IMG/VR virus record: IMGVR_UViG_3300035182_000741
Span: 1-20,860 of that record
Direction: 5' to 3' (one strand)
DNA from: a virus
DNA: 20,860 bases
The notes under the pieces: generated by a model
Database searches by the model: none
Seen by the model: the letters and a program-made list of their open reading frames with translations, nothing else
Told to the model about the DNA's origin: nothing
Part shown: positions 2,180 through 18,978 of the stretch, piece by piece
How the letters are laid out: the number at the start of each line of letters is the position of its first letter
Position numbering within the stretch: the stretch's first letter is position 1
Position numbers and translations under genes: made by a program

Positions 2180-2214
2180 TTAGGTATTGCCCATTCCGGG
2201 CAGGAGGAGAACAG

Positions 2215-3248: not shown

Positions 3249-3902
3249 CTAATCTTGCGTTGAGTTGGGAAGTTCCGGTAACTCAATCGGAGCAGCGTCT
3301 AGCATTTGAGTAGCTACACTACTTAAGGATGGGTCAGCCTCAATCATGCGTTTGACCTGCGCCCTAAGTTGCTCCGTGGACATGTTGGCAAATTCATCCT
3401 TTTGCTCAATGACCTGCTTGTCCTGGAACCTCTTATTCCCTCTAGCCGCAGCGCGGAGAAGCACATCTACCTTGAGCTTATCAGCCTGGACATTCTCTCG
3501 GTCTGTATTGATCCCAATATCTAGTGCTTTTTCACCTAGTTTATGGGCTCGGATTTCCTCAGCGCGGTCATAGTCCCGCAAGAACTCGGGATGGTTGTCA
3601 AACCAACTATAGACCTCCTGCATGGTAGGCATACCGCGTTGGTCACAAAGCTCGGGGAGCGAAGTCCCGGACGCTACAAGCGCATTAATGTAAACCATCA
3701 TCTTCTGACGGTTGAGGATCTTCCCATCCACGATCCATTCCTGCTTGTAGTCCATCTTCCTCAACTCCTTCATCCTTCTGTTGTAAAGCTCCAGACGTTC
3801 CTTGGCCTTCCTATCCCCGAACTGAGCGGCCAGACGAAGTTCGTAAGACTCCTTCAACTGCTTGGCAGATACCTTGAATCTGTAAGGCTTTTTATTCGCC
3901 AT
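3249..3902 (-). CDS. terS: Phage terminase small subunit, Sf6/G1P-like (217 aa)
   Basis: The central part (about 80-125) matches the helix-turn-helix region of Sf6-type small terminases: SLPELCDQRGMPTMQEVYSW, then HPEFLRDYDRAEEIRAHKLGE. The LKVDVLLRAAARGNKRFQDK segment follows, corresponding to the K-x-D-x-R-K-W...KYGDK region of the family. The small subunit binds the packaging site and hands DNA to the large ATPase subunit. The N-terminal 60 residues are highly charged helix and longer than usual. The ATG at 3902 overlaps the upstream gene by 11 bp; its Shine-Dalgarno site is weak. No large terminase lies next to it: the next DNA holds convergent rightward genes. Confidence 0.75.
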   Translation of the reverse strand: MANKKPYRFKVSAKQLKESYELRLAAQFGDRKAKERLELYNRRMKELRKMDYKQEWIVDGKILNRQKMMVYINALVASGTSLPELCDQRGMPTMQEVYSWFDNHPEFLRDYDRAEEIRAHKLGEKALDIGINTDRENVQADKLKVDVLLRAAARGNKRFQDKQVIEQKDEFANMSTEQLRAQVKRMIEADPSLSSVATQMLDAAPIELPELPNSTQD

Positions 3903-4077
3903 TTTTTGTGCCAGGTCCGTGATGAATGCGGTCGAGATCATCAAGTGTTGGCAGATCACCGCTAGATCGCCATTCAATGTAGTCCAGATCCTTCTCGAAG
4001 ATCCAGACCTCGCCAGCAATGGGGTCATTTCGCATATAGACAAACCGGTAAGGCCCTACCCAGTAATTGATTCTCAT
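3892..4077 (-). CDS. Hypothetical protein (61 aa)
   Basis: Starts at the ATG at 4077 inside an ATGA overlap with the preceding gene, after CTGGAG. The sequence begins MRINYWVGPYRFVYMRND, aromatic and probably beta-stranded, then is acidic (EKDLDYIEW). It overlaps the terminase start by 11 bp, so translation may be coupled. No family recognised. Its position in the packaging operon is the only functional hint. Confidence 0.55.
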   Translation of the reverse strand: MRINYWVGPYRFVYMRNDPIAGEVWIFEKDLDYIEWRSSGDLPTLDDLDRIHHGPGTKNGE

Positions 4078-4316
4078 TGTTTACTCCAGATTCCAGAAGA
4101 CTTGTCGCGGAATGCGGTTGAAATCGCAGCAGCCAGGCTATCCAGGATTCTTTCTCTCTCGTGCGGGGATTCGATCATAGTGAAGTAGTCATCATAGGAC
4201 ATGGTGACATAAACACCCTCGTTACCCTTTACAAAGAGGATGGTCCGGCCTGCTTTCCCATCCCGAACATCCTGGATTCGGAACCCGTAGAAGTTATCCC
4301 CCTTGTCGAGAATCAT
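4074..4316 (-). CDS. Hypothetical protein (80 aa)
   Basis: The ATG at 4316 is preferred over the farther upstream in-frame start because AAGGAGGAGGA lies directly before it and it forms an ATGA overlap with the HTH gene. The protein reads as beta-strand (YGFRIQDV, RTILFVKGNEGVYVTMSYDD) followed by a helix (ERERILDSLAAAISTAF). No membrane segment or cysteine. No family recognised. Confidence 0.6.
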   Translation of the reverse strand: MILDKGDNFYGFRIQDVRDGKAGRTILFVKGNEGVYVTMSYDDYFTMIESPHERERILDSLAAAISTAFRDKSSGIWSKQ

Positions 4317-4513
4317 TCCTCCTCCTTGTCGCGGGCCCGCAGCGCAAGGGTCTCTTTGACCCAATACAGGGGAACACCGGGCTTCCCCTTCTCATCCCGG
4401 TCACAAGGGATGGATTTACGCAAGCACCGCTGATAGATATTTTGCCTCGTTGATCCCAACTTGCGGGCCACCTCCGCAAAGGAAAGATGTGTAGACCAGA
4501 ACTCATCAACCAT
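4313..4513 (-). CDS. Small helix-turn-helix DNA-binding protein (66 aa)
   Basis: Residues 12-36 (FAEVARKLGSTRQNIYQRCL) form a clear helix-turn-helix with the A-x3-G turn. The following KGKPGVPLYWV resembles the wing seen in MerR/excisionase-like or terminase-associated HTH proteins. It sits in the small-terminase operon, so it could help recognise the packaging site or regulate the operon. The ATG at 4513 follows AGGA; a TTG at 4519 is possible but is too close to that site. Function beyond DNA binding is inference. Confidence 0.65.
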   Translation of the reverse strand: MVDEFWSTHLSFAEVARKLGSTRQNIYQRCLRKSIPCDRDEKGKPGVPLYWVKETLALRARDKEEE

Positions 4514-4515
4514 AA

Positions 4516-4836
4516 TCAAATCCTATCGATTAGAAAAATCACGAGTTTACGAAGATCATTAAGATGGCTGACGGTAGCATCAAACAATTCTTTACTCACA
4601 CCACCCGTTGCGCCTGTTGGCTTAATACCGAACTCCCACAACATGTCGGCAAGGGCTTGCAGGTCATCTTTCTCGACACCGAAGCCGCAGTTATCTGGTA
4701 GCTTTGTGCTTGGGTCATATTCCTCAAACGACACAACCCCAATCTTACTCACCCGGCCATTTACCTTTTGGGCGAATCGGAACCTACTCCCGTAACTATC
4801 GGGATCGGGAAGAACTTGGAAAACCATGTTGCTCAT
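4516..4836 (-). CDS. Hypothetical protein (106 aa), first gene of the leftward operon
   Basis: The ATG at 4836 has GGAGG seven bases upstream. The in-frame ATG at 4848 would lie at the predicted transcription start and is less likely. The N-terminal half is beta-rich (VFQVLPDPDSYGSRFRFAQ). The C-terminal half is helical (DDLQALADMLWEFG, then LFDATVSHLNDLRKLVIFLI). There are no metal ligands. It is separated from the next gene by only a few bases. No family recognised. Confidence 0.6.
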   Translation of the reverse strand: MSNMVFQVLPDPDSYGSRFRFAQKVNGRVSKIGVVSFEEYDPSTKLPDNCGFGVEKDDLQALADMLWEFGIKPTGATGGVSKELFDATVSHLNDLRKLVIFLIDRI

Positions 4837-4853
4837 GTAAACCTCCATACTGA

Positions 4854-4881
4854 ATTATACGTAAACCCGTAAACCTGTCAA
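4854..4881 (-). promoter_or_regulatory. Consensus promoter of the terminase operon, with tandem GTTTACG in the spacer
   Basis: On the minus strand TTGACA (4881-4876) and TATAAT (4859-4854), both perfect, are 16 bp apart. The spacer contains GTTTAC twice (4874-4869 and 4866-4861), and a third copy lies between the ribosome binding site and ATG (4842-4837). The copies look like operator sites, which would let a repressor silence this strong promoter. Confidence 0.85.
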
Positions 4882-4935
4882 CTGCCCGGACCATTCAAAC
4901 TGCACCCATGTCCACGATTCATGAACAGTAAATAA

Positions 4936-5020
4936 CCCCTACGGGGAAACAACCCCCTTCGGGGAAATACCTCCCCACTCGGGAGAACAATCCCGAACAG
5001 GAAGAACGCCCCCTTGCGGG
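4936..5020 (+). repeat. Array of four small GC hairpins with A-rich linkers
   Basis: CCC-TACG-GGG (4937-4946), CCC-TTCG-GGG (4955-4964), CTCCC...GGGAG (4971-4985) and CCC-TTGC-GGG (about 5011-5020) follow one another with short linkers such as AAACAA and AAATAC. The first two carry UNCG-type tetraloops closed by C-G, which are unusually stable in RNA. Read on the plus strand this would be a beads-on-a-string RNA. No promoter for it is clear. Confidence 0.6.
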
Positions 5021-5309
5021 AACCCAAAACCTCAGACAAGAGCAAACGCAACACCAGTGCGGTTCTCCGCTCCCCCAGACTTGAAACCCGTAAACCCAAG
5101 TCCAATTCTTCCCCACGTCAGTGTGACTTATTAACATAAGCCCCCCATCGTCATCCACCCTCCCTCGCTCATACTGCTATAATTATTATATTACTCACCA
5201 TTATACTCTACATAGACTTACGAGGTAGTCTTACCCCCGGCGTAGAGGAGACCACCCTCTGCAACTGCATTATGCTTATTCCATTATAAATCTGTTATTG
5301 CAATATGTT

Positions 5310-5385
5310 GATGTAAACTCATCCGAGAAATCGGTCCGTGTACTGAACGAGGTGTAAACTCACCTGAGAAAATGGTTCGTGTACT
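5310..5385 (+). repeat. Two 35-nt direct repeats with a covarying stem
   Basis: Copies at 5310-5344 and 5351-5385 match at 29 of 35 positions with a 41-bp period. Each starts with a stem around TAAACT: GATG/CATC in copy 1 and GGTG/CACC in copy 2, so two differences compensate each other. Copy 1 then forms CCGA-GAAA-TCGG, a GNRA hairpin, which is weakened in copy 2. Each also contains GTAAAC. Confidence 0.65.
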
Positions 5386-5771
5386 TGTCGGAGTGCTTTC
5401 GCCCGCCGCCGCCTGATTCCGCTGGTCCCATCCCGGGGGGCCTGGTGAGGGTTGTCCTGCTGGCTCAGGCTAGTGGATCGGCATCTGGCGCGGATCTATG
5501 GCATACTCCCAGGCATACAGCCAGCATATATGCGGGCCTATGATACTAGCATTGCGTTATATTTAATATTTGCGCGGGGGCAGGCGGTGAGCCCGTAGCA
5601 CCCTCGCCCAGTTTGCGGGGCGAATTCCTGTAGCTGTGAATCCGCGTTTATTGGGAAAGGGGGAGTGGAGTGTGGGAATTTGCACTATTCTCGGGAAACA
5701 GCATCATTAAACTGCATCCCACGGCCAGCCACTCAGCGCCTGGGTCTCTCCTTTATCTGTTGTCTGATACC

Positions 5772-5787
5772 ATCTGGCCCGCGATTT
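5772..5787 (+). repeat. Copy of a dispersed repeat containing TGGCCCGCGA
   Basis: TCTGGCCCGCGATTTG here resembles the 23-nt repeats at 6551-6573 and 7111-7133, which read TCTGGCCCGCGACTTG and CCTGGCCCGCGACTTG in the corresponding part. All three copies are intergenic. Confidence 0.4.
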
Positions 5788-5809
5788 GGTTCTGCCGGTC
5801 CGAAGTCTG

Positions 5810-5856
5810 TGACGTAACACGTCAGTTTACGGTGACGCGGGTGACGCAACACGTCA
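5810..5856. promoter_or_regulatory. Paired TGACG(T/C)-AAC-ACGTCA dyads, probable operators
   Basis: TGACGT-AAC-ACGTCA at 5810-5824 is a perfect 6-bp dyad. TGACGC-AAC-ACGTCA at 5842-5856 repeats it 32 bp downstream, about three helical turns. A further half-site TGACGC lies between them at 5833-5838. This spacing on one DNA face is typical of cooperative repressor binding. The binding protein is unknown. Confidence 0.55.
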
Positions 5857-5927
5857 GTCTATCTATTAGGGTAGTTCAATCTGTATTCCAGCCAGGGAAT
5901 AATAAAACATTAGACTTAGGTACTCTG

Positions 5928-5956
5928 CAACATGCGATCTGCAACATGTTGTTTTT
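5928..5956 (+). terminator. Terminator-like hairpin before the rightward gene run
   Basis: CAACATG (5928-5934) pairs with CATGTTG (5945-5951) around a 10-nt loop, followed by TTTTT (5952-5956). CTGCAACATG itself occurs twice within it. The stem is not GC-rich, so strength is moderate. As no gene precedes it, it would end a noncoding transcript. Confidence 0.45.
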
Positions 5957-6038
5957 CGCATCGCGTTCTAGGCTCTGATATGGGCAGAATGGCCAGTCTT
6001 ATTAGTGTCCCGCAAATTGGTACGGTCTCTGCTTCCAT

Positions 6039-6056
6039 TATTACCAGGAGGTAATA
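6039..6056 (+). promoter_or_regulatory. Hairpin enclosing the ribosome binding site of the gene at 6059
   Basis: TATTACC (6039-6045) pairs with GGTAATA (6050-6056) around an AGGA loop. The Shine-Dalgarno sequence AGGAGG spans the loop and stem. The ATG follows three bases later, so folding would mask the site. Confidence 0.6.
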
Positions 6057-6058
6057 CG

Positions 6059-6217
6059 ATGATTATGTACTCGCTGGCCCTGGGTCTCGACATTGATCTG
6101 TCGGGAGAACTGTCCGACACACAGATTGAGGCGATCTACCGCGATCTGGAAGATCCCAGCATGGCCCCCGGCATTCGTTCCGCCTGCGAAACCGCGATTC
6201 GTCGTGTCTGTTGCTAA
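6059..6217 (+). CDS. Hypothetical protein (52 aa)
   Basis: First gene of the long rightward run. The ATG at 6059 follows AGGAGGT, which is enclosed in a 7-bp hairpin (6039-6056) that could limit translation. An ATG two codons later is an alternative. The protein is acidic and helical (SGELSDTQIEAIYRDLED), ending in a basic, Cys-containing stretch (RRVCC). No family recognised. Confidence 0.55.
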   Translation: MIMYSLALGLDIDLSGELSDTQIEAIYRDLEDPSMAPGIRSACETAIRRVCC

Positions 6218-6239
6218 TGACCTTGTGCTCATCCAACCC

Positions 6240-6270
6240 GTGGCCGATGCCACAATCTTAGGAGTCTGAC
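6240..6270 (+). promoter_or_regulatory. Leader hairpin with CGAT loop, copy 1
   Basis: GTGGC-CGAT-GCCAC (6240-6253) forms a 5-bp stem with a four-base loop. It is followed by the invariant GGAGTCTGAC and the ATG at 6271. Near-identical leaders precede the genes at 6613 and 6888. Confidence 0.65.
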
Positions 6271-6549
6271 ATGCTAGCTTGTGACAAGTATAAAACGATA
6301 GACTTCCCCCATGGGATCACCGTCAACGATGGTTCGTGGAATCCGGCCACACTCATTGCCGTGGACATGGCCTACGGTGGGCCTTGTTTCATCGTCACTC
6401 GTGACATTAAAGGAAAGTGTGGCGACATTCTAGACTCTATCGCGCCAGGTTTGGCAGAAATAGCGGAAACCTTCGCCATGGAATGCCACCTTGCGGGCGA
6501 TGTATGGTCCAAGCATAGTCCTATGGTCAGGATCGAATCCAATATCTAA
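6271..6549 (+). CDS. Hypothetical protein (92 aa)
   Basis: Starts at the ATG after GGAGTCTGAC, downstream of the copy-1 leader hairpin. The sequence has beta-like segments (ATLIAVDMAYGGPCFIVTRDI) and a helix (APGLAEIAETFAMECHLAG), with four cysteines that do not form an obvious zinc motif. No transmembrane segment. It shares its 5' leader but not its protein sequence with the next two genes, so the leader seems to have been reused for unrelated coding units. No family recognised. Confidence 0.6.
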   Translation: MLACDKYKTIDFPHGITVNDGSWNPATLIAVDMAYGGPCFIVTRDIKGKCGDILDSIAPGLAEIAETFAMECHLAGDVWSKHSPMVRIESNI

Positions 6550-6550
6550 A

Positions 6551-6573
6551 ATTCTGGCCCGCGACTTGCAACC
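6551..6573 (+). repeat. 23-nt intergenic repeat, copy 1
   Basis: CTGGCCCGCGACTTGCAACC follows the stop of the gene at 6271 almost at once. The 23 bases at 6551-6573 match 7111-7133 at 22 positions, and a related shorter copy is at 5772. Each sits between a stop codon and the next gene's leader hairpin. Confidence 0.6.
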
Positions 6574-6581
6574 TTTATTCT

Positions 6582-6612
6582 GTGGCAGATGCCACTAGCT
6601 CAGGAGTCTGAC
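6582..6612 (+). promoter_or_regulatory. Leader hairpin with AGAT loop, copy 2
   Basis: GTGGC-AGAT-GCCAC (6582-6595), then AGGAGTCTGAC and the ATG at 6613. Only the first loop base and the linker to the Shine-Dalgarno site differ from copy 1. Confidence 0.65.
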
Positions 6613-6843
6613 ATGGTCCGCTTTGAACATACCGACACTTTCGGGGGCGAGGCAAATTACGCTTGGGTCCGTCGAGGTGAATACAAGGGAAACAAGGGAG
6701 AATCCGATCTCAGCTTGGTCCGTGCTGCAAAGAAGTTCGCTGGATTCACTAGTCTCAAGTGCAGAGTGGACCACTATGGCGACATGATCGCTATTTATCC
6801 TAGCGGTCTGTGTCAGGTCTGTTTTGTTTATTACGAATACTGA
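6613..6843 (+). CDS. Conserved phage/plasmid-type hypothetical protein (76 aa)
   Basis: The ATG at 6613 lies seven bases after AGGAG in the copy-2 leader. The N-terminus (DTFGGEANYAWVRR) and the middle (DYGDM-like HYGDMIAIYPSGLCQVCF) resemble a small conserved hypothetical family that I recall from phages and plasmids, without known function; this is recognition by eye only. The order is beta-rich start, helix (LVRAAKKFAGF), then beta. No catalytic motif is evident. An accessory or host-interaction role is likely, given the context of small early genes. Confidence 0.65.
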   Translation: MVRFEHTDTFGGEANYAWVRRGEYKGNKGESDLSLVRAAKKFAGFTSLKCRVDHYGDMIAIYPSGLCQVCFVYYEY

Positions 6844-6855
6844 CCAATTCAATCA

Positions 6856-6887
6856 GTGGCCGATGCCGCAAACCTTTGGAGTCTGAC
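6856..6887 (+). promoter_or_regulatory. Leader hairpin with CGAT loop, copy 3
   Basis: GTGGC-CGAT-GCCGC (6856-6869) keeps the stem through a T-G wobble where the other copies have T-A. It is followed by TTGGAGTCTGAC and the ATG at 6888. Confidence 0.65.
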
Positions 6888-7109
6888 ATGGAAACCTTAA
6901 TTCTGCTCAGAACGTGGAAGTATTCTGGATTTACTGGCTATTCTGAACATATCGCTCCGGTCGAGTCATGCGAAGCCCTGGTAAGGCAGGCGATGAAAGA
7001 AGACGGAGTCTATACCGCTCGCGCCACAGCCTATACCTTCGGCGCCGGGAAGGTCGTTAATGCCTTCCAGACTGGTACCAAACCTTTCGATACAGGTTGG
7101 AGATACTAA
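6888..7109 (+). CDS. Hypothetical protein (73 aa)
   Basis: Starts at the ATG after the copy-3 leader. It begins METLILLRTWKYSGFTGYSE and ends NAFQTGTKPFDTGWRY, and is alternating beta and helix with many aromatic residues. One cysteine, no membrane segment. It has some compositional likeness to the gene at 6613 but no convincing alignment. Function unknown. Confidence 0.6.
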   Translation: METLILLRTWKYSGFTGYSEHIAPVESCEALVRQAMKEDGVYTARATAYTFGAGKVVNAFQTGTKPFDTGWRY

Positions 7110-7110
7110 C

Positions 7111-7155
7111 ATCCTGGCCCGCGACTTGCAACCATTAAACCGGGCCGGATGGCCC
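7111..7155 (+). promoter_or_regulatory. 23-nt repeat copy 2 plus leader hairpin with GGAT loop
   Basis: The 23-nt repeat at 7111-7133 is followed by GGGCC-GGAT-GGCCC (7142-7155), a 5-bp stem whose sequence differs from copies 1-3 while keeping the GAT loop. The ribosome binding site AGGAGG and the ATG at 7169 follow. Confidence 0.6.
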
Positions 7156-7168
7156 AACAGGAGGAAAT

Positions 7169-7492
7169 ATGAACCGCAAAGAATACATGGCCAACCCCAA
7201 CAAGCTCCATAGGGCCTACTACGGGCAATTCGTGACTCCCTCCATCCGGCGCTACGTGGCGAATTGCATCGGCATTGATCAGATTAGGGCGTCCAAAGAC
7301 AGATACTTCAACGATATCCCCTTGCCTAGGTGGGACCGGTTGAGCGGTTCTTTGCAGCATGTTCTCTCGGTACCTGGAGAGATTGAATACCCGAACCACC
7401 CAGAATATGCGGGGAAAAGGTTTTATTCACTTTGTAATGGTGTCTGTATCCTCAAGGAAGCTGCCCGCCAACTGCTGGAATGTGCAGAATGA
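7169..7492 (+). CDS. Hypothetical protein (107 aa)
   Basis: Good AGGAGGAA Shine-Dalgarno site. The sequence has a charged N-terminal helix, a segment (AYYGQFVTPSIRRYVANCIG) and a motif FNDIPLPRWDRL that look like a folded conserved domain. The C-terminal VCILKEAARQLLE helix has a cysteine. I associate the YYxQFVTP and NDIPLxxWD patterns with uncharacterised phage proteins, without a function. Its stop overlaps the next start in ATGA, implying coupled translation. Confidence 0.6.
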   Translation: MNRKEYMANPNKLHRAYYGQFVTPSIRRYVANCIGIDQIRASKDRYFNDIPLPRWDRLSGSLQHVLSVPGEIEYPNHPEYAGKRFYSLCNGVCILKEAARQLLECAE

Positions 7493-7659
7493 ACTCCTTT
7501 CGCGTCCAATTTGAAGACGGTAACACAATCGTCACGGGTTTCAATGGGGCACTTGCCGACGCCCAAGCCTATTATCTCGGCCAATATTTCAACTTTGGAG
7601 ACACTGATTCGTGCCCGAAGGATCGCATGGTGAAAGCTGTTCTTGTGGAAGTTTATTGA
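7489..7659 (+). CDS. Small conserved phage protein (56 aa)
   Basis: Starts in an ATGA overlap with the gene at 7169. The sequence MNSFRVQFEDGNTIVTGFNG, followed by ALADAQAYYLGQYFNFG and an ending MVKAVLVEVY, resembles a small uncharacterised family common in phage genomes. The pattern is beta-beta, helix, then a VKAV-type beta strand. It has no catalytic residues of note. Length (56) fits the family as I remember it. Function unknown. Confidence 0.65.
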   Translation: MNSFRVQFEDGNTIVTGFNGALADAQAYYLGQYFNFGDTDSCPKDRMVKAVLVEVY

Positions 7660-7663
7660 ACCC

Positions 7664-7677
7664 GCGTTGCAAAACGC
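7664..7677 (+). promoter_or_regulatory. Leader hairpin with GCAA loop
   Basis: GCGTT-GCAA-AACGC is a perfect 5-bp stem with a GNRA tetraloop, nine bases before the TTGGAGG site of the gene at 7695. Confidence 0.55.
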
Positions 7678-7694
7678 ATCATCTTGGAGGCTTT

Positions 7695-7802
7695 ATGCTT
7701 CGTACTCGCCTAATCCTTTGGCCTGTTCTTGCCTCGGGCTTGGTCTACATCCTGCTTAACATTTATGAGGCTCTGGAGGCTGTTAGGGTTTGTCTCTTCT
7801 GA
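7695..7802 (+). CDS. Small single-pass membrane protein (35 aa)
   Basis: The ATG follows GGAGG by four bases, after a GNRA leader hairpin. After a basic start (MLRTR), residues 6-26 (LILWPVLASGLVYILLNIYE) form one transmembrane helix. A short cytoplasmic or periplasmic tail follows. The positive-inside rule puts the N-terminus in the cytoplasm. Such micro-proteins in early phage regions often modify host membranes or superinfection; this is only inference. Confidence 0.55.
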   Translation: MLRTRLILWPVLASGLVYILLNIYEALEAVRVCLF

Positions 7803-7841
7803 CCCGCGCCCGTCCCCGTCTCGTCTCGCTATGCTCAACTC

Positions 7842-7854
7842 GCCGGCATCCGGC
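7842..7854 (+). promoter_or_regulatory. Leader hairpin before the gene at 7870
   Basis: GCCGG-CAT-CCGGC forms a 5-bp stem about six bases before the AAAGGAA ribosome binding site. Confidence 0.5.
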
Positions 7855-7869
7855 CTCGAAAGGAATACA

Positions 7870-8139
7870 ATGACAAAGTCCATGAAATCTTACAGCGGCA
7901 AGGGTATTTTCGACCCCAAGGAAGCCAAGTCAAGGCGCAAGTGGTTCCGTTCCCCACGGTTCCGCGATCTGTGCCGTGGTGTCGTTAAGATCCAAGGCGG
8001 TCATGGTCAGATTGAGGCCACGGAAGAGGGGTGCATCGCCCTGGCTATCGCAGAATCTACTTTTGAGTACCAATGGTTTGATGGGTCACTCGAAGAATGG
8101 CTTGACGGTAAACCGTTCGAGACTCGGAAAGTAGGTTAA
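7870..8139 (+). CDS. Hypothetical protein (89 aa)
   Basis: The ATG follows AAAGGAATACA, downstream of a GC hairpin. The first 40 residues are strongly basic (KSYSGKGIFDPKEAKSRRKW), and the rest is mixed (CIALAIAESTFEYQWFDGSLEEWLDG). The composition suits nucleic-acid binding but no fold is recognised. An internal in-frame ATG four codons later is possible. Confidence 0.55.
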   Translation: MTKSMKSYSGKGIFDPKEAKSRRKWFRSPRFRDLCRGVVKIQGGHGQIEATEEGCIALAIAESTFEYQWFDGSLEEWLDGKPFETRKVG

Positions 8140-8185
8140 TGCCACATAACCCTAACAGACTTGAAACAGTCAACAGGAGAACACA

Positions 8186-8392
8186 ATGCACAAGCCGTTC
8201 TATTCTGTCCAGTGCTACGAATACGATGCACCAGGTTTTAACGCAATCATTCATTGTTCAAGCCGCCGCAAGGCTTCCCGCGTCTTTGGGCAGCTCCGGT
8301 CGAAGTTCCCCGGTTCTATCGTCACACTGAACCGGAGGCAATACTTCGGCGAAGGCGTTTGGCTTACCACCACTCACCACTGGAAGGGCTGA
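8186..8392 (+). CDS. Hypothetical protein (68 aa)
   Basis: The ATG follows CAGGAGAACACA. A weak hairpin GACT...AGTC precedes the ribosome binding site. The N-terminus is aromatic (KPFYSVQCYEYDAPGF); the middle is basic and helical (SSRRKASRVFGQLRSKF); the end reads beta (GVWLTTTHHW). This strand-helix-strand layout is compatible with a small alpha/beta fold. No family recognised. Confidence 0.55.
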   Translation: MHKPFYSVQCYEYDAPGFNAIIHCSSRRKASRVFGQLRSKFPGSIVTLNRRQYFGEGVWLTTTHHWKG

Positions 8393-8450
8393 AAGACCTG
8401 GCACGATCCTCGCGACCTAGCAACCGGCTACAACGCCCAACGGAGACACA

Positions 8451-8588
8451 ATGCTGAACCTCGAAACGATCTGTCGAATGCTTGAGGGTGCCATGACTGA
8501 CGCCCATGTCTGGGCAGAATCAGGCTACATTTTCATCGAACAGGACGGGGAGACCTCCCGCCTGTCTATTGACCGGGTGCGGCAATGA
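8451..8588 (+). CDS. Small hypothetical protein (45 aa)
   Basis: Starts at an ATG after CGGAGACACA, the same ribosome binding block seen at 9140 (GGAGACACA). The protein is an N-terminal helix (MLNLETICRMLEGA) followed by a beta hairpin (VWAESGYIFIEQDGETSRLS). It ends in ATGA overlap with the next gene. No family recognised. Confidence 0.5.
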   Translation: MLNLETICRMLEGAMTDAHVWAESGYIFIEQDGETSRLSIDRVRQ

Positions 8589-8764
8589 AGCCCCAGCGGA
8601 TCGACACTGAAAGGCTCCAGGCCATGCTTGACTACGCCAACGAGAAGGCGCGGGCCGATGACTGTATCCACCGCCTAGAATTGAGGAACGAGGTGGCCAA
8701 GTTGCAAAATGCAACGCGAATCGGGATCTTGAGGGCATTGGGAGGGGATTATGTTGGTTTGTGA
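8585..8764 (+). CDS. Small helical protein (59 aa)
   Basis: Starts in an ATGA overlap with the gene at 8451 and ends 14 bp inside the next gene, so three frames are chained. It is almost wholly helical with charged heptad-like spacing (TERLQAMLDYANEKARADD, then IHRLELRNEVAKLQN), suggesting a coiled coil. Within the gene TTGCA-AAA-TGCAA makes a short dyad. Function unknown. Confidence 0.5.
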   Translation: MKPQRIDTERLQAMLDYANEKARADDCIHRLELRNEVAKLQNATRIGILRALGGDYVGL

Positions 8765-9071
8765 ACCACGCCGAATCGTCTCGAATGTGGATCGGATGGC
8801 ATACGACCACCTGCTAAGGGCTGGCATCATCCATACCAACAGCGCCGGACGTCCCAAGGTGCAGAAGAAACTCCCGAAGGCGCGGATTGGGTGGAAGAAA
8901 CTCGGCCCCATGCGGAGTGGAGGCTGTAAACAATGCGGAGACGCCCCTAGTCAGGTTCCGGTTGGGCTTCCCAAGTCCGAAGATCCCAACCTCTGCGACA
9001 GGTGTTTCGCTGTCCTAGCTAACTCTCGGCGGTATTGGATCGCCTCTGAAGATTTCCCGTGTGCGGGATAA
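8751..9071 (+). CDS. Zinc-ribbon protein (106 aa)
   Basis: The ATG at 8751 is preceded by GGGAGGGGATT. The N-terminal half (RMAYDHLLRAGIIHTN) is helical and basic. A zinc ribbon is formed by C59-x2-C62 (CKQC) and C82-x2-C85 (CDRC). The spacing between the pairs (19 residues) is normal for a treble-clef or ribbon. A nucleic-acid or protein-adaptor role is likely. It is followed by a new promoter, so it closes a transcription unit. Confidence 0.6.
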   Translation: MLVCEPRRIVSNVDRMAYDHLLRAGIIHTNSAGRPKVQKKLPKARIGWKKLGPMRSGGCKQCGDAPSQVPVGLPKSEDPNLCDRCFAVLANSRRYWIASEDFPCAG

Positions 9072-9079
9072 AAAACCCC

Positions 9080-9108
9080 TTGCTTCCGGTTTACGCTGGA
9101 CCCATAAT
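9080..9108 (+). promoter_or_regulatory. Promoter with GTTTAC in the spacer
   Basis: TTGCTT (9080-9085) and CATAAT (9103-9108) are 17 bp apart. GTTTAC lies at 9089-9094 in the context CGGTTTACGCTGG, close to CGGTTTACATTGG in the promoter at 18583. Confidence 0.5.
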
Positions 9109-9115
9109 CTAACCA

Positions 9116-9127
9116 GCCCATGAGGGC
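9116..9127 (+). promoter_or_regulatory. Leader hairpin before the gene at 9140
   Basis: GCCC-ATGA-GGGC forms a 4-bp GC stem three bases before the GGAG site. Confidence 0.5.
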
Positions 9128-9139
9128 AAAGGAGACACA

Positions 9140-9448
9140 ATGAAAATCGAGAGCAGGCACCTCAGTTCCGCCTCATTCAAAGGCCCGGTCAACACCGGTC
9201 TTGAGTACCGGATCGACGCGAATTGTTACAGCGTCCAGCTCGGCTTCCACGACGGATCTGGCCTGTATAGCAACATCTTTTTCAACTCCCTGCCGAGGCT
9301 TCTCAACTTCTACCGGGAGCTGGGCGAAGCTATTGATTTTGTTCAGCCCGGTGTCATCAACCCCCTGCCCGATGGAGACCCTGGCGAAGTGGACGCCATG
9401 AAGGTCATCTTCGAGGCCGACCAGCTCAAGAAGGGAGTCGCCGTATGA
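9140..9448 (+). CDS. Hypothetical protein (102 aa)
   Basis: First gene after the promoter at 9080. The ATG follows AAAGGAGACACA. The sequence is beta-rich (GLEYRIDANCYSVQLGFHD, then YSNIFFNSLP) with a helix (RLLNFYRELGEAIDFV) and a Lys-rich end. No metal site or membrane segment. It ends in ATGA overlap with the Tad2-like gene, so expression is probably coupled. No family recognised. Confidence 0.6.
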   Translation: MKIESRHLSSASFKGPVNTGLEYRIDANCYSVQLGFHDGSGLYSNIFFNSLPRLLNFYRELGEAIDFVQPGVINPLPDGDPGEVDAMKVIFEADQLKKGVAV

Positions 9449-9708
9449 AACCGACAGTAGGGAGTGCGCCCAACATCATTGCCCAGGCCCTAGAATTAGG
9501 TATTCTGTGCAGGCCCATGCACTCGTCAAGGGTAGGGGTTGGGGAAGCCCTGGTCGTCTCAAGAGACCTTTTCTGGCTCCAGGATGGGTACGAAGGGCGG
9601 CTCAAGGTATTCTCTCCCAGCCCTGATGAACTCATGCAGGATTGGGAGCTTACCACCCCGGACTTGATTCGGTCTGAATGGCTGAAGTCCTGCGAAGAAC
9701 CGTTTTAG
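9445..9708 (+). CDS. Possible DUF2829/Tad2-like protein (87 aa)
   Basis: The segment FSPSPDELMQDWELT near residue 66 resembles the C-terminal W-x-PS-x-x-DL-x-x-DWE signature of DUF2829, and the N-terminal IIAQALELGILCRP resembles its A-x-x-x-G-x-x-v-x-R start. Length also fits (about 80-90 residues). DUF2829 includes Tad2, which sequesters the Thoeris signal nucleotide and so counters that host defence. The middle is divergent, so this may be a distant relative with another ligand, or a false match. It is coupled to the gene at 9140 by an ATGA overlap. Confidence 0.4.
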   Translation: MKPTVGSAPNIIAQALELGILCRPMHSSRVGVGEALVVSRDLFWLQDGYEGRLKVFSPSPDELMQDWELTTPDLIRSEWLKSCEEPF

Positions 9709-14136: not shown

Positions 14137-14169
14137 GGGCGGGGGTCTCCGGGCTCCCGCCCTTTTTTT
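14137..14169 (+). terminator. Rho-independent terminator after the SSB-like gene
   Basis: GGGCGGG (14137-14143) pairs with CCCGCCC (14156-14162) around a 12-nt loop, followed by seven Ts (14163-14169). It starts 14 bp after the stop. Confidence 0.9.
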
Positions 14170-14180
14170 ATGGAGCAAAA

Positions 14181-14902: not shown

Positions 14903-15227
14903 TGAACTAAAGAAGCTGGAAGCCGAAGCAACCCCCGCACCTTGGGGAGCAGAGGTCGCCCAGGGGGAAACACGAAACGGCTTGGAAGGCGTGTTTTACG
15001 CTTACGCTGGTGGTCCCACGCATGAGTGCGGGATACAGTTGAGCCCGTGCGGAATCCAAGGGAAGGCGATGACAGACGCGATGCTGATAAAGGCTTTGCG
15101 GAACCTTGCGCCGGAGTTGATCGCCATGTGGGACGAACTGAACATGATGGAGCCAGCGTTGGACGGGAACCTCCTGACGGTGCTCTACGAACTTAACAAA
15201 AAAGCCAAATCAACCATCGTCGGCTAA
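14892..15227 (+). CDS. Ead/Ea22-like phage protein (111 aa)
   Basis: The opening MTIDELKKLEAEATPAPWGA matches the L-x-x-L-A-x-x-A-T-P-G-P-W start of lambda Ea22/Ead-type proteins. The later MTDAMLIKALRNLAPELIAM matches their D-x-x-x-I-A-x-x-N-x-x-P-x-L segment. Ea22-type proteins are accessory early proteins of unclear function. The start overlaps the RHH gene; GGAGGAACG precedes it. The TAA stop lies inside the left arm of the attC-like palindrome, as for cassette ORFs. Confidence 0.7.
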   Translation: MTIDELKKLEAEATPAPWGAEVAQGETRNGLEGVFYAYAGGPTHECGIQLSPCGIQGKAMTDAMLIKALRNLAPELIAMWDELNMMEPALDGNLLTVLYELNKKAKSTIVG

Positions 15228-15311
15228 CGACCCAAACTGACCGGCCCCGCCCGGTAGCTCGATTGAAACCAAACACCGGATGCGGGGTCCGGTTGAGCGC
15301 ATGGTTAGGCG
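15221..15311. other. Integron attC-like recombination site
   Basis: CGGCTAAC (15221-15228) pairs with GTTAGGCG (15304-15311) with one mismatch, fitting the R''/R' core sites of integron attC. Inside, CCGGCCCCGC (15241-15250) pairs with GCGGGGTCCGG (15282-15292), with one bulged T, and CCGG 15251-15254 pairs with CCGG 15276-15279. The 91-bp length and bulged, imperfect palindrome fit attC folding. The upstream gene stops in the left core and the next gene begins just after the right core, the normal cassette arrangement. No integrase gene is in the window. Confidence 0.6.
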
Positions 15312-15324
15312 AGAGAGGATGGAC

Positions 15325-18582: not shown

Positions 18583-18610
18583 TTGACATAACGCCGATGC
18601 GGTTTACATT
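18583..18610 (+). promoter_or_regulatory. Promoter with GTTTAC at the -10
   Basis: TTGACA (18583-18588, perfect) and TACATT (18605-18610) are 16 bp apart. GTTTAC (18602-18607) overlaps the -10. It lies just after the helicase stop and drives the genes from 18643. Confidence 0.65.
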
Positions 18611-18618
18611 GGTGTTTA

Positions 18619-18630
18619 GCCCAGATGGGC
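18619..18630 (+). promoter_or_regulatory. Leader hairpin with AGAT loop before the gene at 18643
   Basis: GCCC-AGAT-GGGC forms a 4-bp GC stem directly before CAAGGAGACGAG. The loop is the same as in the leader at 6582. Confidence 0.55.
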
Positions 18631-18642
18631 CAAGGAGACGAG

Positions 18643-18978
18643 ATGAGCCAGGACGAAACGCAGGCCATTGGGTCCGAGTCGAGCGCACGGTTAGGCGGTG
18701 CTGAATCAGAAAACAATCTCATCATCAAACTTCAATTCGCTGAATCCGTGGTCCGTGACCAAGACAAAGCCATCAAGGAGATGGTCGAAGCCTATGGCGA
18801 GATGGAGAAGGGCATCGAAGACCCGATTCTCTGTCATTATAACGGCCTACGGTTGCACAACGCCATGGAGGATCTTCGCGCTCTGGTGACCCCAGGCTAC
18901 AAGCCGAACTACGAGCCGAACACTGAGCCTGAACTGGATGGATCATCCAAAGAAAACCTCAACCCAAGCCTGAAGTAG
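18643..18978 (+). CDS. Hypothetical helical protein (111 aa)
   Basis: First gene behind the promoter at 18583. Acidic N-terminus (SQDETQAIGSESSARLGGAE), then a long helix (LIIKLQFAESVVRDQDKAIK, AYGEMEKGIED), a second helix (NAMEDLRALV), and a disordered tail rich in Pro, Asn and Glu (YKPNYEPNTEPELD). The part encoding ESSARLGG lies on DNA resembling the right half of the attC-like site. No family recognised. Confidence 0.6.
   Translation: MSQDETQAIGSESSARLGGAESENNLIIKLQFAESVVRDQDKAIKEMVEAYGEMEKGIEDPILCHYNGLRLHNAMEDLRALVTPGYKPNYEPNTEPELDGSSKENLNPSLK
18670..18697 (+). other. attC right-half-like sequence inside a gene
   Basis: 24 of 27 positions match the right half of the attC-like site at 15285-15311, with one extra base, ending in GGTTAGGCG in both. 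No matching left half is found upstream, so it cannot fold as attC. It may be chance or a remnant. Confidence 0.3.

What the first reader, a model, noticed from the sequence alone, without database searches (positions are those of the whole stretch)
6240..7155. Reused leader hairpins with a constant GAT loop before ribosome binding sites
Three genes (6271, 6613, 6888) start with a near-identical 31-32 nt leader: a 5-bp stem, NGAT loop, then GGAGTCTGAC and ATG. A fourth (7169) has a different stem (GGGCC/GGCCC) with the same loop type. The stem changes preserve pairing (including a T-G wobble in copy 3) while the loop stays NGAT. The genes themselves are unrelated. This pattern suggests an RNA element acting on translation or processing, such as a target of a phage or host RNA-binding protein.
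Basis: partly seen in the sequence, partly recalled or inferred. Interest (0 to 1): 0.75.

Follow-up and report, generated by a model that had tools for sequence, protein, structure and literature searches.

The report
Promoter–hairpin modules heading phage genes
In a group of phages that probably infect Geothrix-like soil and sediment bacteria, many small accessory genes carry the same kind of start cassette: a promoter, often of the unusual sigma-54 type, then a short RNA hairpin at the predicted front end of the message, then the ribosome-binding site; this looks like a reusable expression module that is swapped between genes.

Summary
Four leaders with a 5-bp stem and an NGAT loop precede four unrelated genes; about 0.01 such hairpin+SD+start arrangements are expected per strand. 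Related IMG/VR contigs show more copies, stems that change with pairing kept, and a strongly preferred NGAT loop.

The hairpin is tied to promoters, not to particular genes. In 14 of 14 intact modules it begins 10–13 nt (core 12) after a sigma-54-type -24/-12 site (TGG-N10-GC), that is at predicted +1/+2. Four of the six best sigma-54 sites in the window lie in this cluster. Elsewhere the same kind of hairpin follows sigma-70-like -10 boxes at predicted +1. Where a gene has been inserted, the hairpin stays with the promoter in four ortholog comparisons.

Best reading: a promoter / 5'-terminal hairpin / RBS module, shuffled among accessory genes and analogous to T4 PeSLs, whose hairpin most likely shields the mRNA 5' end and keeps the RBS open. 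Two of the four leaders (6240, 6856) have no recognisable promoter here. A loop-binding protein is not excluded. All is sequence inference; no transcript was measured.

The parts
6018..6032 (+). sigma-54-type -24/-12 site TGGTACGGTCTCTGC upstream of the first gene of the cluster (6059); no comparable hairpin at +1 here
   Evidence: GG-N10-GC; third-best sigma-54 PWM site of the window, 12.2 bits
6240..6253 (+). leader hairpin GTGGC-CGAT-GCCAC before gene 6271; no promoter recognisable upstream in this window (present at the ortholog in L016)
6260..6264 (+). Shine-Dalgarno AGGAG of gene 6271
   Evidence: sequence
6271..6549 (+). small gene of unknown function, 92 aa
6555..6569 (+). sigma-54-type -24/-12 site TGGCCCGCGACTTGC, 12 nt upstream of the hairpin
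6582..6595 (+). leader hairpin GTGGC-AGAT-GCCAC, at predicted +2
6602..6606 (+). Shine-Dalgarno AGGAG of gene 6613
   Evidence: sequence
6613..6843 (+). small gene of unknown function, 76 aa
6856..6869 (+). leader hairpin GTGGC-CGAT-GCCGC (T·G wobble) before gene 6888; no promoter recognisable here, but promoter+hairpin precede its ortholog in L021
6878..6881 (+). Shine-Dalgarno GGAG of gene 6888
   Evidence: sequence
6888..7109 (+). small gene of unknown function, 73 aa
7115..7129 (+). sigma-54-type -24/-12 site TGGCCCGCGACTTGC, 12 nt upstream of the hairpin
7142..7155 (+). leader hairpin GGGCC-GGAT-GGCCC, at predicted +2
7159..7164 (+). Shine-Dalgarno AGGAGG of gene 7169
   Evidence: sequence
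7169..7492 (+). small gene of unknown function, 107 aa
7842..7854 (+). leader hairpin GCCGG-CAT-CCGGC before gene 7870; in L021, L042 and L048 the ortholog carries the GTGGC leader instead (leader swap)
8399..8413 (+). sigma-54-type site TGGCACGATCCTCGC; only a degenerate hairpin (GGC/GCC) 12 nt downstream, before gene 8451
2189..2201 (+). leader hairpin GCCC-ATTCC-GGGC after a sigma-70-like promoter (TTGCGC ... TATATT); the 55-kb relative has ATCGCCT-CGAT-AGGCGAT at the same place
9080..9108 (+). sigma-70-like promoter TTGCTT-N17-CATAAT
   Evidence: sequence; conserved in relatives
9116..9127 (+). leader hairpin GCCC-ATGA-GGGC at predicted +2 of that promoter; replaced by GGGC-ACGAT-GCCC in L021, L042 and L046
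12201..12215 (+). leader hairpin TGCCC-GCAAA-GGGCA; orthologs GCCCA-TGA-TGGGC and TGCCCA-CAG-TGGGCG
18583..18610 (+). sigma-70-like promoter TTGACA-N16-TACATT
18619..18630 (+). leader hairpin GCCC-AGAT-GGGC (NGAT loop)
5884..5901 (.). conserved imperfect palindrome TATTCC-N6-GGAATA, about 117 bp upstream of the first sigma-54 site: candidate enhancer (UAS), untested
   Evidence: present in close relatives, weaker in contig 402 and the 55-kb one

Best explanation
These are modular gene-start cassettes: promoter, then an RNA hairpin at the extreme 5' end of the transcript, then SD and start codon, placed in front of individual accessory genes of a Holophagaceae phage group. Supported by sequence: (1) the hairpins are enriched at intergenic starts, structured, and phage-specific; (2) in the accessory cluster most of them follow a sigma-54-type -24/-12 element at a fixed 12-nt distance, and elsewhere they follow sigma-70-like -10 boxes at predicted +1; (3) the hairpin stays with the promoter when genes are inserted or swapped. 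Inferred: transcripts begin at the base of the hairpin; the blunt GC-rich 5' hairpin denies single-stranded 5' access to the host decay machinery (RNase J, RppH, RNase E/G) and keeps the SD free, so every captured gene gets a stable, translatable message. Also inferred: host RpoN plus a host enhancer-binding protein drives the sigma-54-type copies; and the shared leaders act as homology patches through which accessory genes are exchanged. Hairpins at 6240 and 6856 would then be modules that have lost their promoter in this contig.
For: Hairpins before the SD: 51 of 128 intergenic starts against 14.3±2.9 in dinucleotide shuffles; starts close to an upstream gene 7 of 60 against 5.1. Holophagaceae chromosomal DNA: 67 of 292 against 56±6, and no GAT loops. 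TGG-N10-GC upstream of hairpins: 15 of 77 against 1.9±1.2 expected; other spacings 0-7, against about 2 expected. Gap from GC to hairpin: 10-13 nt (core 12) in 14 of 14 genuine modules. PWM made from 29 ChIP-chip sigma-54 sites (PMC3844500): 11 of 77 leaders at 10 bits or more against 0.18 expected, none at 8 bits when the spacer is 9 or 11; four of the six best of about 41,700 window positions are 6018, 6555, 7115 and 8399. Ortholog leaders chosen by gene homology: gene 9140 keeps its promoter and SD while the hairpin changes from GCCC-ATGA-GGGC to GGGC-ACGAT-GCCC; gene 2215 keeps its -10 while the stem is replaced in the 55-kb relative. The hairpin follows the promoter, not the gene, in orthologs of 2215 (contig 1393), 6888 and 8186 (contigs 402, 841) and 8451 (contig 836). 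Leader swap at gene 7870. Holophagaceae encode RpoN with an intact RpoN box ARRTVNKYRE, RNase J and RNase E/G. Protection by 5' hairpins is established in E. coli and B. subtilis (PMC3997798).
Against: Leaders 6240 and 6856 have no recognisable promoter here, so their hairpins may be intercistronic. The first sigma-54-type site (6018) has no clear hairpin at +1, and 8399 and the site at 12496 of contig 841 have only degenerate ones. Two modules in L021 have an 11-nt spacer, which sigma-54 should not tolerate. No enhancer-binding protein was found in nine phage records. The preferred NGAT loop is not explained by 5'-end protection alone. Some hairpins (GCCGG-CAT-CCGGC, CCTGC-TGAT-GCAGG) have no clear promoter. 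No transcript 5' ends or mRNA half-lives are available, and the host is inferred.
Confidence: 0.6

Rival explanations
1. The hairpin is the binding site of a phage or host RNA-binding protein (translational regulator, or a boxB-like antitermination protein) that reads the NGAT loop on a stem of variable sequence.
For: GAT-ending loops in 8 of 36 stem classes against 0.7% of chance hairpins; tetraloops of the 5-bp class are mostly CGAT, TGAT, AGAT or GGAT; no such loops among 74 hairpins in host DNA. A hairpin near the promoter with variable stem and fixed loop resembles the layout of lambda boxB (own knowledge).
Against: Orthologous and neighbouring modules carry CAT, TAT, ATGA, ATTCC, GCAAA, CAA, ACAAC or CGTATA loops at the same place; no RNA-binding protein was identified; no Rfam family matches.
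Confidence: 0.2
2. The leaders exist mainly as short homology patches that let the phage recombination system exchange accessory genes; the hairpin has little role in expression.
For: The same leaders precede different genes and the same gene has different leaders in relatives; these phages encode a YqaJ/RecE-type exonuclease; promoter-stem-loop elements with such a role are described in T4-type phages (cited in PMC4503421, and PMC3950731).
Against: Homology alone does not need base pairing, fixed promoter-hairpin spacing, or compensatory stem replacement at the same locus. Probably a consequence, not the only function.
Confidence: 0.1
3. The inverted repeats are DNA operators overlapping the start of transcription and bound by a dimeric repressor.
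For: Inverted repeats centred near +8 are a classic operator position (own knowledge).
Against: Half-sites differ between modules of one genome (GTGGC, GGGCC, GCCC, GCCGG), so no common DNA sequence is offered; G·U pairs (GTGGC/GCCGC, GGGCC/GGCCT, GTGGC/GTCAC) preserve RNA but not DNA symmetry.
Confidence: 0.05
4. Only recent duplication of a leader, with no function of the structure.
For: The three GTGGC leaders are near-identical paralogues (D6 and D10).
Against: Unrelated stems at equivalent positions, enrichment over shuffles only at intergenic starts, fixed spacing to promoters.
Confidence: 0.04

Closest known systems
PeSLs (early promoter plus stem-loop) of T4-type phages (Arbiol 2010; Comeau 2014; both seen only as cited in PMC4503421 and PMC3950731)
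   Same: A compact promoter plus stem-loop unit repeated between small genes in a variable region and linked to gene shuffling
   Different: Here the stem-loop lies downstream of the promoter at predicted +1, joined to the SD, and has no U-run; the 2014 title calls PeSLs promoter-terminator motifs. The promoters here are sigma-54-type or sigma-70-like, and the phages are not T4-type (portal and terminase of another kind)
Intergenic motif of haloarchaeal virus HGTV-1 (TATA-like box plus inverted repeat, PMC3950731) and promoter repeats of halovirus HF2 (PMC8707807)
   Same: Repeated promoter units in front of many genes, with an inverted repeat in HGTV-1
   Different: Archaeal promoters, unrelated sequences; not tested here for a hairpin at +1
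Start-associated sequences (SAS/ESAS) of Cluster K mycobacteriophages (PMC3203893)
   Same: Repeated element next to start codons of non-structural genes; about half of them have an upstream inverted repeat
   Different: SAS is one fixed 13-bp sequence, GGGATAGGAGCCC; ESAS has 17-bp inverted repeats. Here sequence varies and the structure stays
5'-terminal stabilising stem-loops of bacterial mRNAs (bla with an added 5' hairpin and others, PMC3997798)
   Same: GC-rich hairpin at the very 5' end, upstream of the RBS
   Different: Here a standard part repeated over many unrelated phage genes, with a preferred NGAT loop
Sigma-54 (RpoN) promoters (PMC3844500)
   Same: TGG(C/T)N(C/T)(G/A) ... GC with a 10-nt GG-GC gap, many copies
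   Different: Multiple sigma-54-type promoters on a phage accessory region; no activator gene found; weaker (7-15 bits) than the training promoters (14.5-20 bits)

Membership tests
Sigma-54 (-24/-12) promoter | GG at -24 and GC at -12 separated by exactly 10 nt | tested here: met
   15 of 77 leaders against 1.9 expected; other spacings near background; two L021 copies have 11 nt
Sigma-54 (-24/-12) promoter | Match to the experimentally defined consensus outside GG/GC | tested here: met
   PWM from 29 ChIP-chip sites: 11 of 77 leaders at 10 bits or more against 0.18 expected; -21 is C/T in all 14 modules
Sigma-54 (-24/-12) promoter | RpoN present in the host | tested here: met
   Four Holophagaceae genomes encode it, RpoN box intact in the two read; host assignment itself is inferred
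Sigma-54 (-24/-12) promoter | Enhancer-binding protein and upstream activating site | tested here: inconclusive
   No PF00158 in nine phage records; a host activator is possible; candidate palindrome 5884-5901 untested
Sigma-54 (-24/-12) promoter | RpoN-dependent transcription start 12 nt downstream | not testable with these tools
   needs RNA 5'-end mapping
T4-type PeSL | Promoter plus stem-loop unit between small genes of a variable region | tested here: met
T4-type PeSL | Terminator-like stem-loop | tested here: not met
   No run of T after the hairpins; the SD follows instead
T4-type PeSL | Occurs in a T4-type phage with its early promoters | tested here: not met
   Different promoter class and different portal/terminase families; not filed as a PeSL
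Cluster K SAS/ESAS | 13-bp GGGATAGGAGCCC at the start site | tested here: not met
   absent from the leaders
5'-terminal stabilising stem-loop | Hairpin within a few nt of the transcript 5' end | tested here: inconclusive
   Predicted +1/+2 from sigma-54-type and sigma-70-like promoters; not measured
5'-terminal stabilising stem-loop | Prolongs mRNA half-life | not testable with these tools
   needs a reporter or rifampicin chase
Known Rfam RNA family | Match to a covariance model | tested here: not met
   No hit up to E = 1 in 5000-9500

The most novel reading that the evidence does not exclude
A lineage of Holophagaceae phages expresses its exchangeable accessory genes through a standard cartridge, host-RpoN promoter plus 5'-terminal NGAT hairpin plus SD, and so couples phage accessory functions to the host's sigma-54 stress or nutrient signalling, with the hairpin read by a dedicated phage or host factor.
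Probability: 0.2. Interest if true: 0.75.

Novelty: new variant of a known kind. Interest (0 to 1): 0.5.

Why it matters
Promoter–stem-loop cassettes that travel with accessory genes are known from T4-type phages, and a similar motif has been reported in a haloarchaeal virus. If confirmed here, unrelated phages of a poorly studied bacterial group (Acidobacteriota) have arrived at the same solution with a different promoter class and with the hairpin fused to the RBS. An array of sigma-54-type promoters in a phage would be unusual: limited searches of the open literature library brought up no described case. It would tie phage gene expression to host RpoN activators. The spacing rule (-12 GC, 12 nt, hairpin) makes it directly testable by 5'-end mapping.

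Tried and rejected
N4-type hairpin promoters: the hairpin lies at or after predicted +1, not upstream of it; no single-subunit RNA polymerase was found, but the PF00940 search had no working control. Intrinsic terminators: no T-run. A conserved upstream ORF from the ATG inside NGATG: frames and stops differ between copies, so rejected as a general feature. CsrA/RsmA site (GGA in the loop): of the four window leaders only the 7142 copy has it. Known RNA family: none. Sigma-70 reading of the accessory-cluster leaders: the position where a -10 box should be reads AACCTT, ACCATT or ACTAGT. DNA pattern search for GATGCC...GGAGTCTGAC in IMG/VR: 22 hits, of which two contigs (L016, L021) have the hairpin leader and the rest look like chance. 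Module pattern search: eight hits, four of them chance. Terminase search in genome contigs: nothing. The covariation count on A6 is biased because its sequences were chosen as hairpins; the ortholog comparison carries the argument. No covariance model was built: a 14-nt model would carry too little information.

Full report
WHAT WAS CHECKED. The window is a 20,860-bp IMG/VR virus record with no near match among 50,697 annotated phages. It encodes a DnaB-type helicase, a YqaJ/RecE-like exonuclease, an Sf6-like small terminase subunit, an RNA ligase and many small unknown genes. A scan for a 5-bp NGAT hairpin followed by SD and start finds exactly these four on the + strand, none on the other strand, and 0.01 is expected per strand. 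The four downstream proteins are unrelated and have no Pfam match.

THE PATTERN IS WIDER THAN THE FINDING. Close relatives were found in IMG/VR through the helicase, a small conserved protein, the terminase and DNA patterns, plus a 55.5-kb more distant relative whose contig shows a 19-nt terminal repeat. Short contig names used below: 836 = L016, 2466 = L042, 841 = L052, 402 = L044, 1393 = L046, 1940 = L021, 1826 = L048. Short GC-rich hairpins just before the SD occur at 51 of 128 intergenic starts against 14.3±2.9 in dinucleotide shuffles, but at starts close behind an upstream gene only at the chance rate, 7 of 60 against 5.1 (gene calls are crude). Chromosomal DNA of the probable host shows no such excess, 67 of 292 against 56±6. 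The GAT-ending loop is a real preference: 8 of 36 stem classes against 0.7% of chance hairpins, although some stem classes may share descent.

STRUCTURE, NOT SEQUENCE, IS KEPT. Leaders compared because the downstream genes are orthologs, not because they fold, show stem replacement with pairing retained. Gene 9140 keeps promoter and SD, while GCCC-ATGA-GGGC becomes GGGC-ACGAT-GCCC. Gene 2215 keeps its -10 region, while the GCCC/GGGC hairpin becomes ATCGCCT-CGAT-AGGCGAT. The stem before gene 12227 differs in three phages. In a set chosen as hairpins, all five pairs show changes on both sides, and three single changes give G·U pairs; that set is biased by selection and only illustrates the point. 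RNAfold forms each of the six hairpins tested, though total leader folding energy is not unusual.

THE HAIRPIN IS TIED TO A PROMOTER. Upstream of the hairpins TGG-N10-GC occurs in 15 of 77 leaders against 1.9 expected, while other spacings stay at 0-7. This is the -24/-12 signature of sigma-54. In the 14 genuine modules the hairpin begins 10-13 nt after the GC; for the core stem the distance is 12, which places the stem base at predicted +1/+2. As an independent test, a weight matrix was made from 29 ChIP-chip sigma-54 sites of Salmonella listed in PMC3844500: 11 of 77 leaders reach 10 bits against 0.18 expected, and none reach 8 bits when the spacer is 9 or 11. In the window, sites 6018, 6555, 7115 and 8399 are four of the best six of about 41,700 positions. 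Two of the other high-scoring + strand sites (12122, 11075) lie inside coding sequence. The phage sites score 7-15 bits, mostly below the 14.5-20 bits of the training promoters.

THE SAME RULE WITH ANOTHER PROMOTER CLASS. Before gene 9140, TTGCTT-N17-CATAAT ends 7 nt before the hairpin; before gene 18643, TTGACA-N16-TACATT ends 8 nt before it; before gene 2215, TATATT lies about 8 nt before it. The hairpin again falls at predicted +1/+2.

THE HAIRPIN FOLLOWS THE PROMOTER, NOT THE GENE. In contig 1393 an inserted gene separates promoter+hairpin from gene 2215, which then has neither. In contigs 402 and 841 the ortholog of 6888 lies behind an inserted gene, and the promoter+hairpin stay in front of the insert; for 8186 there and for 8451 in contig 836 the leader hairpin likewise stays in front of the inserted gene. 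Conversely, gene 7870 has a different leader in the window than in three relatives. So the unit that moves is the leader module. Whether it moves by recombination at the leaders themselves was not tested.

HOST. A DnaB pattern search in 84,980 bacterial and archaeal genomes returned 43 loci, all from Holophagae or from acidobacterial MAGs (the two short patterns used could bias this). Window DNA matches several Holophagaceae genomes at phage-like genes and at integron recombination sites. Four Holophagaceae genomes encode RpoN, with the RpoN box ARRTVNKYRE in the two read, as well as RNase J and RNase E/G. The assignment is a strong inference, not a demonstration.

MECHANISM. Supported by sequence: promoter–hairpin–SD modules, RNA structure under constraint, loop preference, modular movement. 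Inferred: start of transcription at the stem base, use of host RpoN, protection of the 5' end from single-strand-dependent decay (general principle reviewed in PMC3997798), and an open SD. Unexplained by this model: the NGAT preference and the two hairpins (6240, 6856) without a recognisable promoter; for 6271 the ortholog in L016 still has a weak sigma-54-type site upstream of the same hairpin. No enhancer-binding protein was found in nine phage records, so a host activator would be needed.

COMPARISON. The closest known things are the promoter–stem-loop cassettes (PeSLs) of T4-type phages and the similar motif of haloarchaeal virus HGTV-1 (read only through PMC4503421, and PMC3950731), promoter repeats of halovirus HF2 (PMC8707807) and SAS/ESAS of Cluster K mycobacteriophages (PMC3203893). 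It works like a PeSL but is not filed as one: promoter class, phage type and the non-terminator hairpin downstream of the promoter differ.

VERDICT. Real, functional-looking, and a new variant of a known kind.

Noticed in passing
window 15213-15312 and 18626-18705; L129; L060 about 3300-6000: Integron attC-like recombination sites in the phage: a full site at 15213-15312 and a half site inside gene 18643 (GGGTCCGAGTCGAGCGCACGGTTAGGC) matching many Holophagaceae genomes at 25-90 nt; the 55-kb relative has about six such sites in a row, i.e. a gene-cassette array. attC sites in phages are known (PMC9892861), but that paper does not mention Geothrix or Acidobacteria.
   Followed up: partly
whole window: Probable host group Holophagaceae (Geothrix relatives), from DnaB similarity, attC matches and phage-like genes in their genomes.
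   Followed up: partly
window 5810-5856: Two dyads TGACGTAACACGTCA / TGACGCAACACGTCA upstream of the accessory cluster, kept with changes in L016 and L048: candidate regulator sites.
   Followed up: no
window 4925-5035: Row of short GC-rich hairpins (CCCCTACGGGG, CCCCCTTCGGGG, TCCCCACTCGGGAG, ...) upstream of the minus-strand genes that include the terminase; meaning unknown.
   Followed up: no
window 5312-5385: 33-nt near-identical tandem duplication TGTAAACTCATCCGAGAAATCGGTCCGTGTACT in the long non-coding stretch.
   Followed up: no
window 6246-6249 and other loops: NGAT plus the next stem base makes an ATG inside many hairpins; frames relative to the gene are not conserved (6582 in frame, the other three not).
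   Followed up: partly
L021 8315-9178: A relative carries a pentapeptide-repeat-like protein gene (ADLSGANL units) as cargo behind one of these modules.
   Followed up: no
window 14137-14170: Strong terminator-like hairpin with T-run (GGGCGGGGGTCTCCGGGCTCCCGCCCTTTTTTT) between genes 13515 and 14181, conserved in relatives.
   Followed up: no
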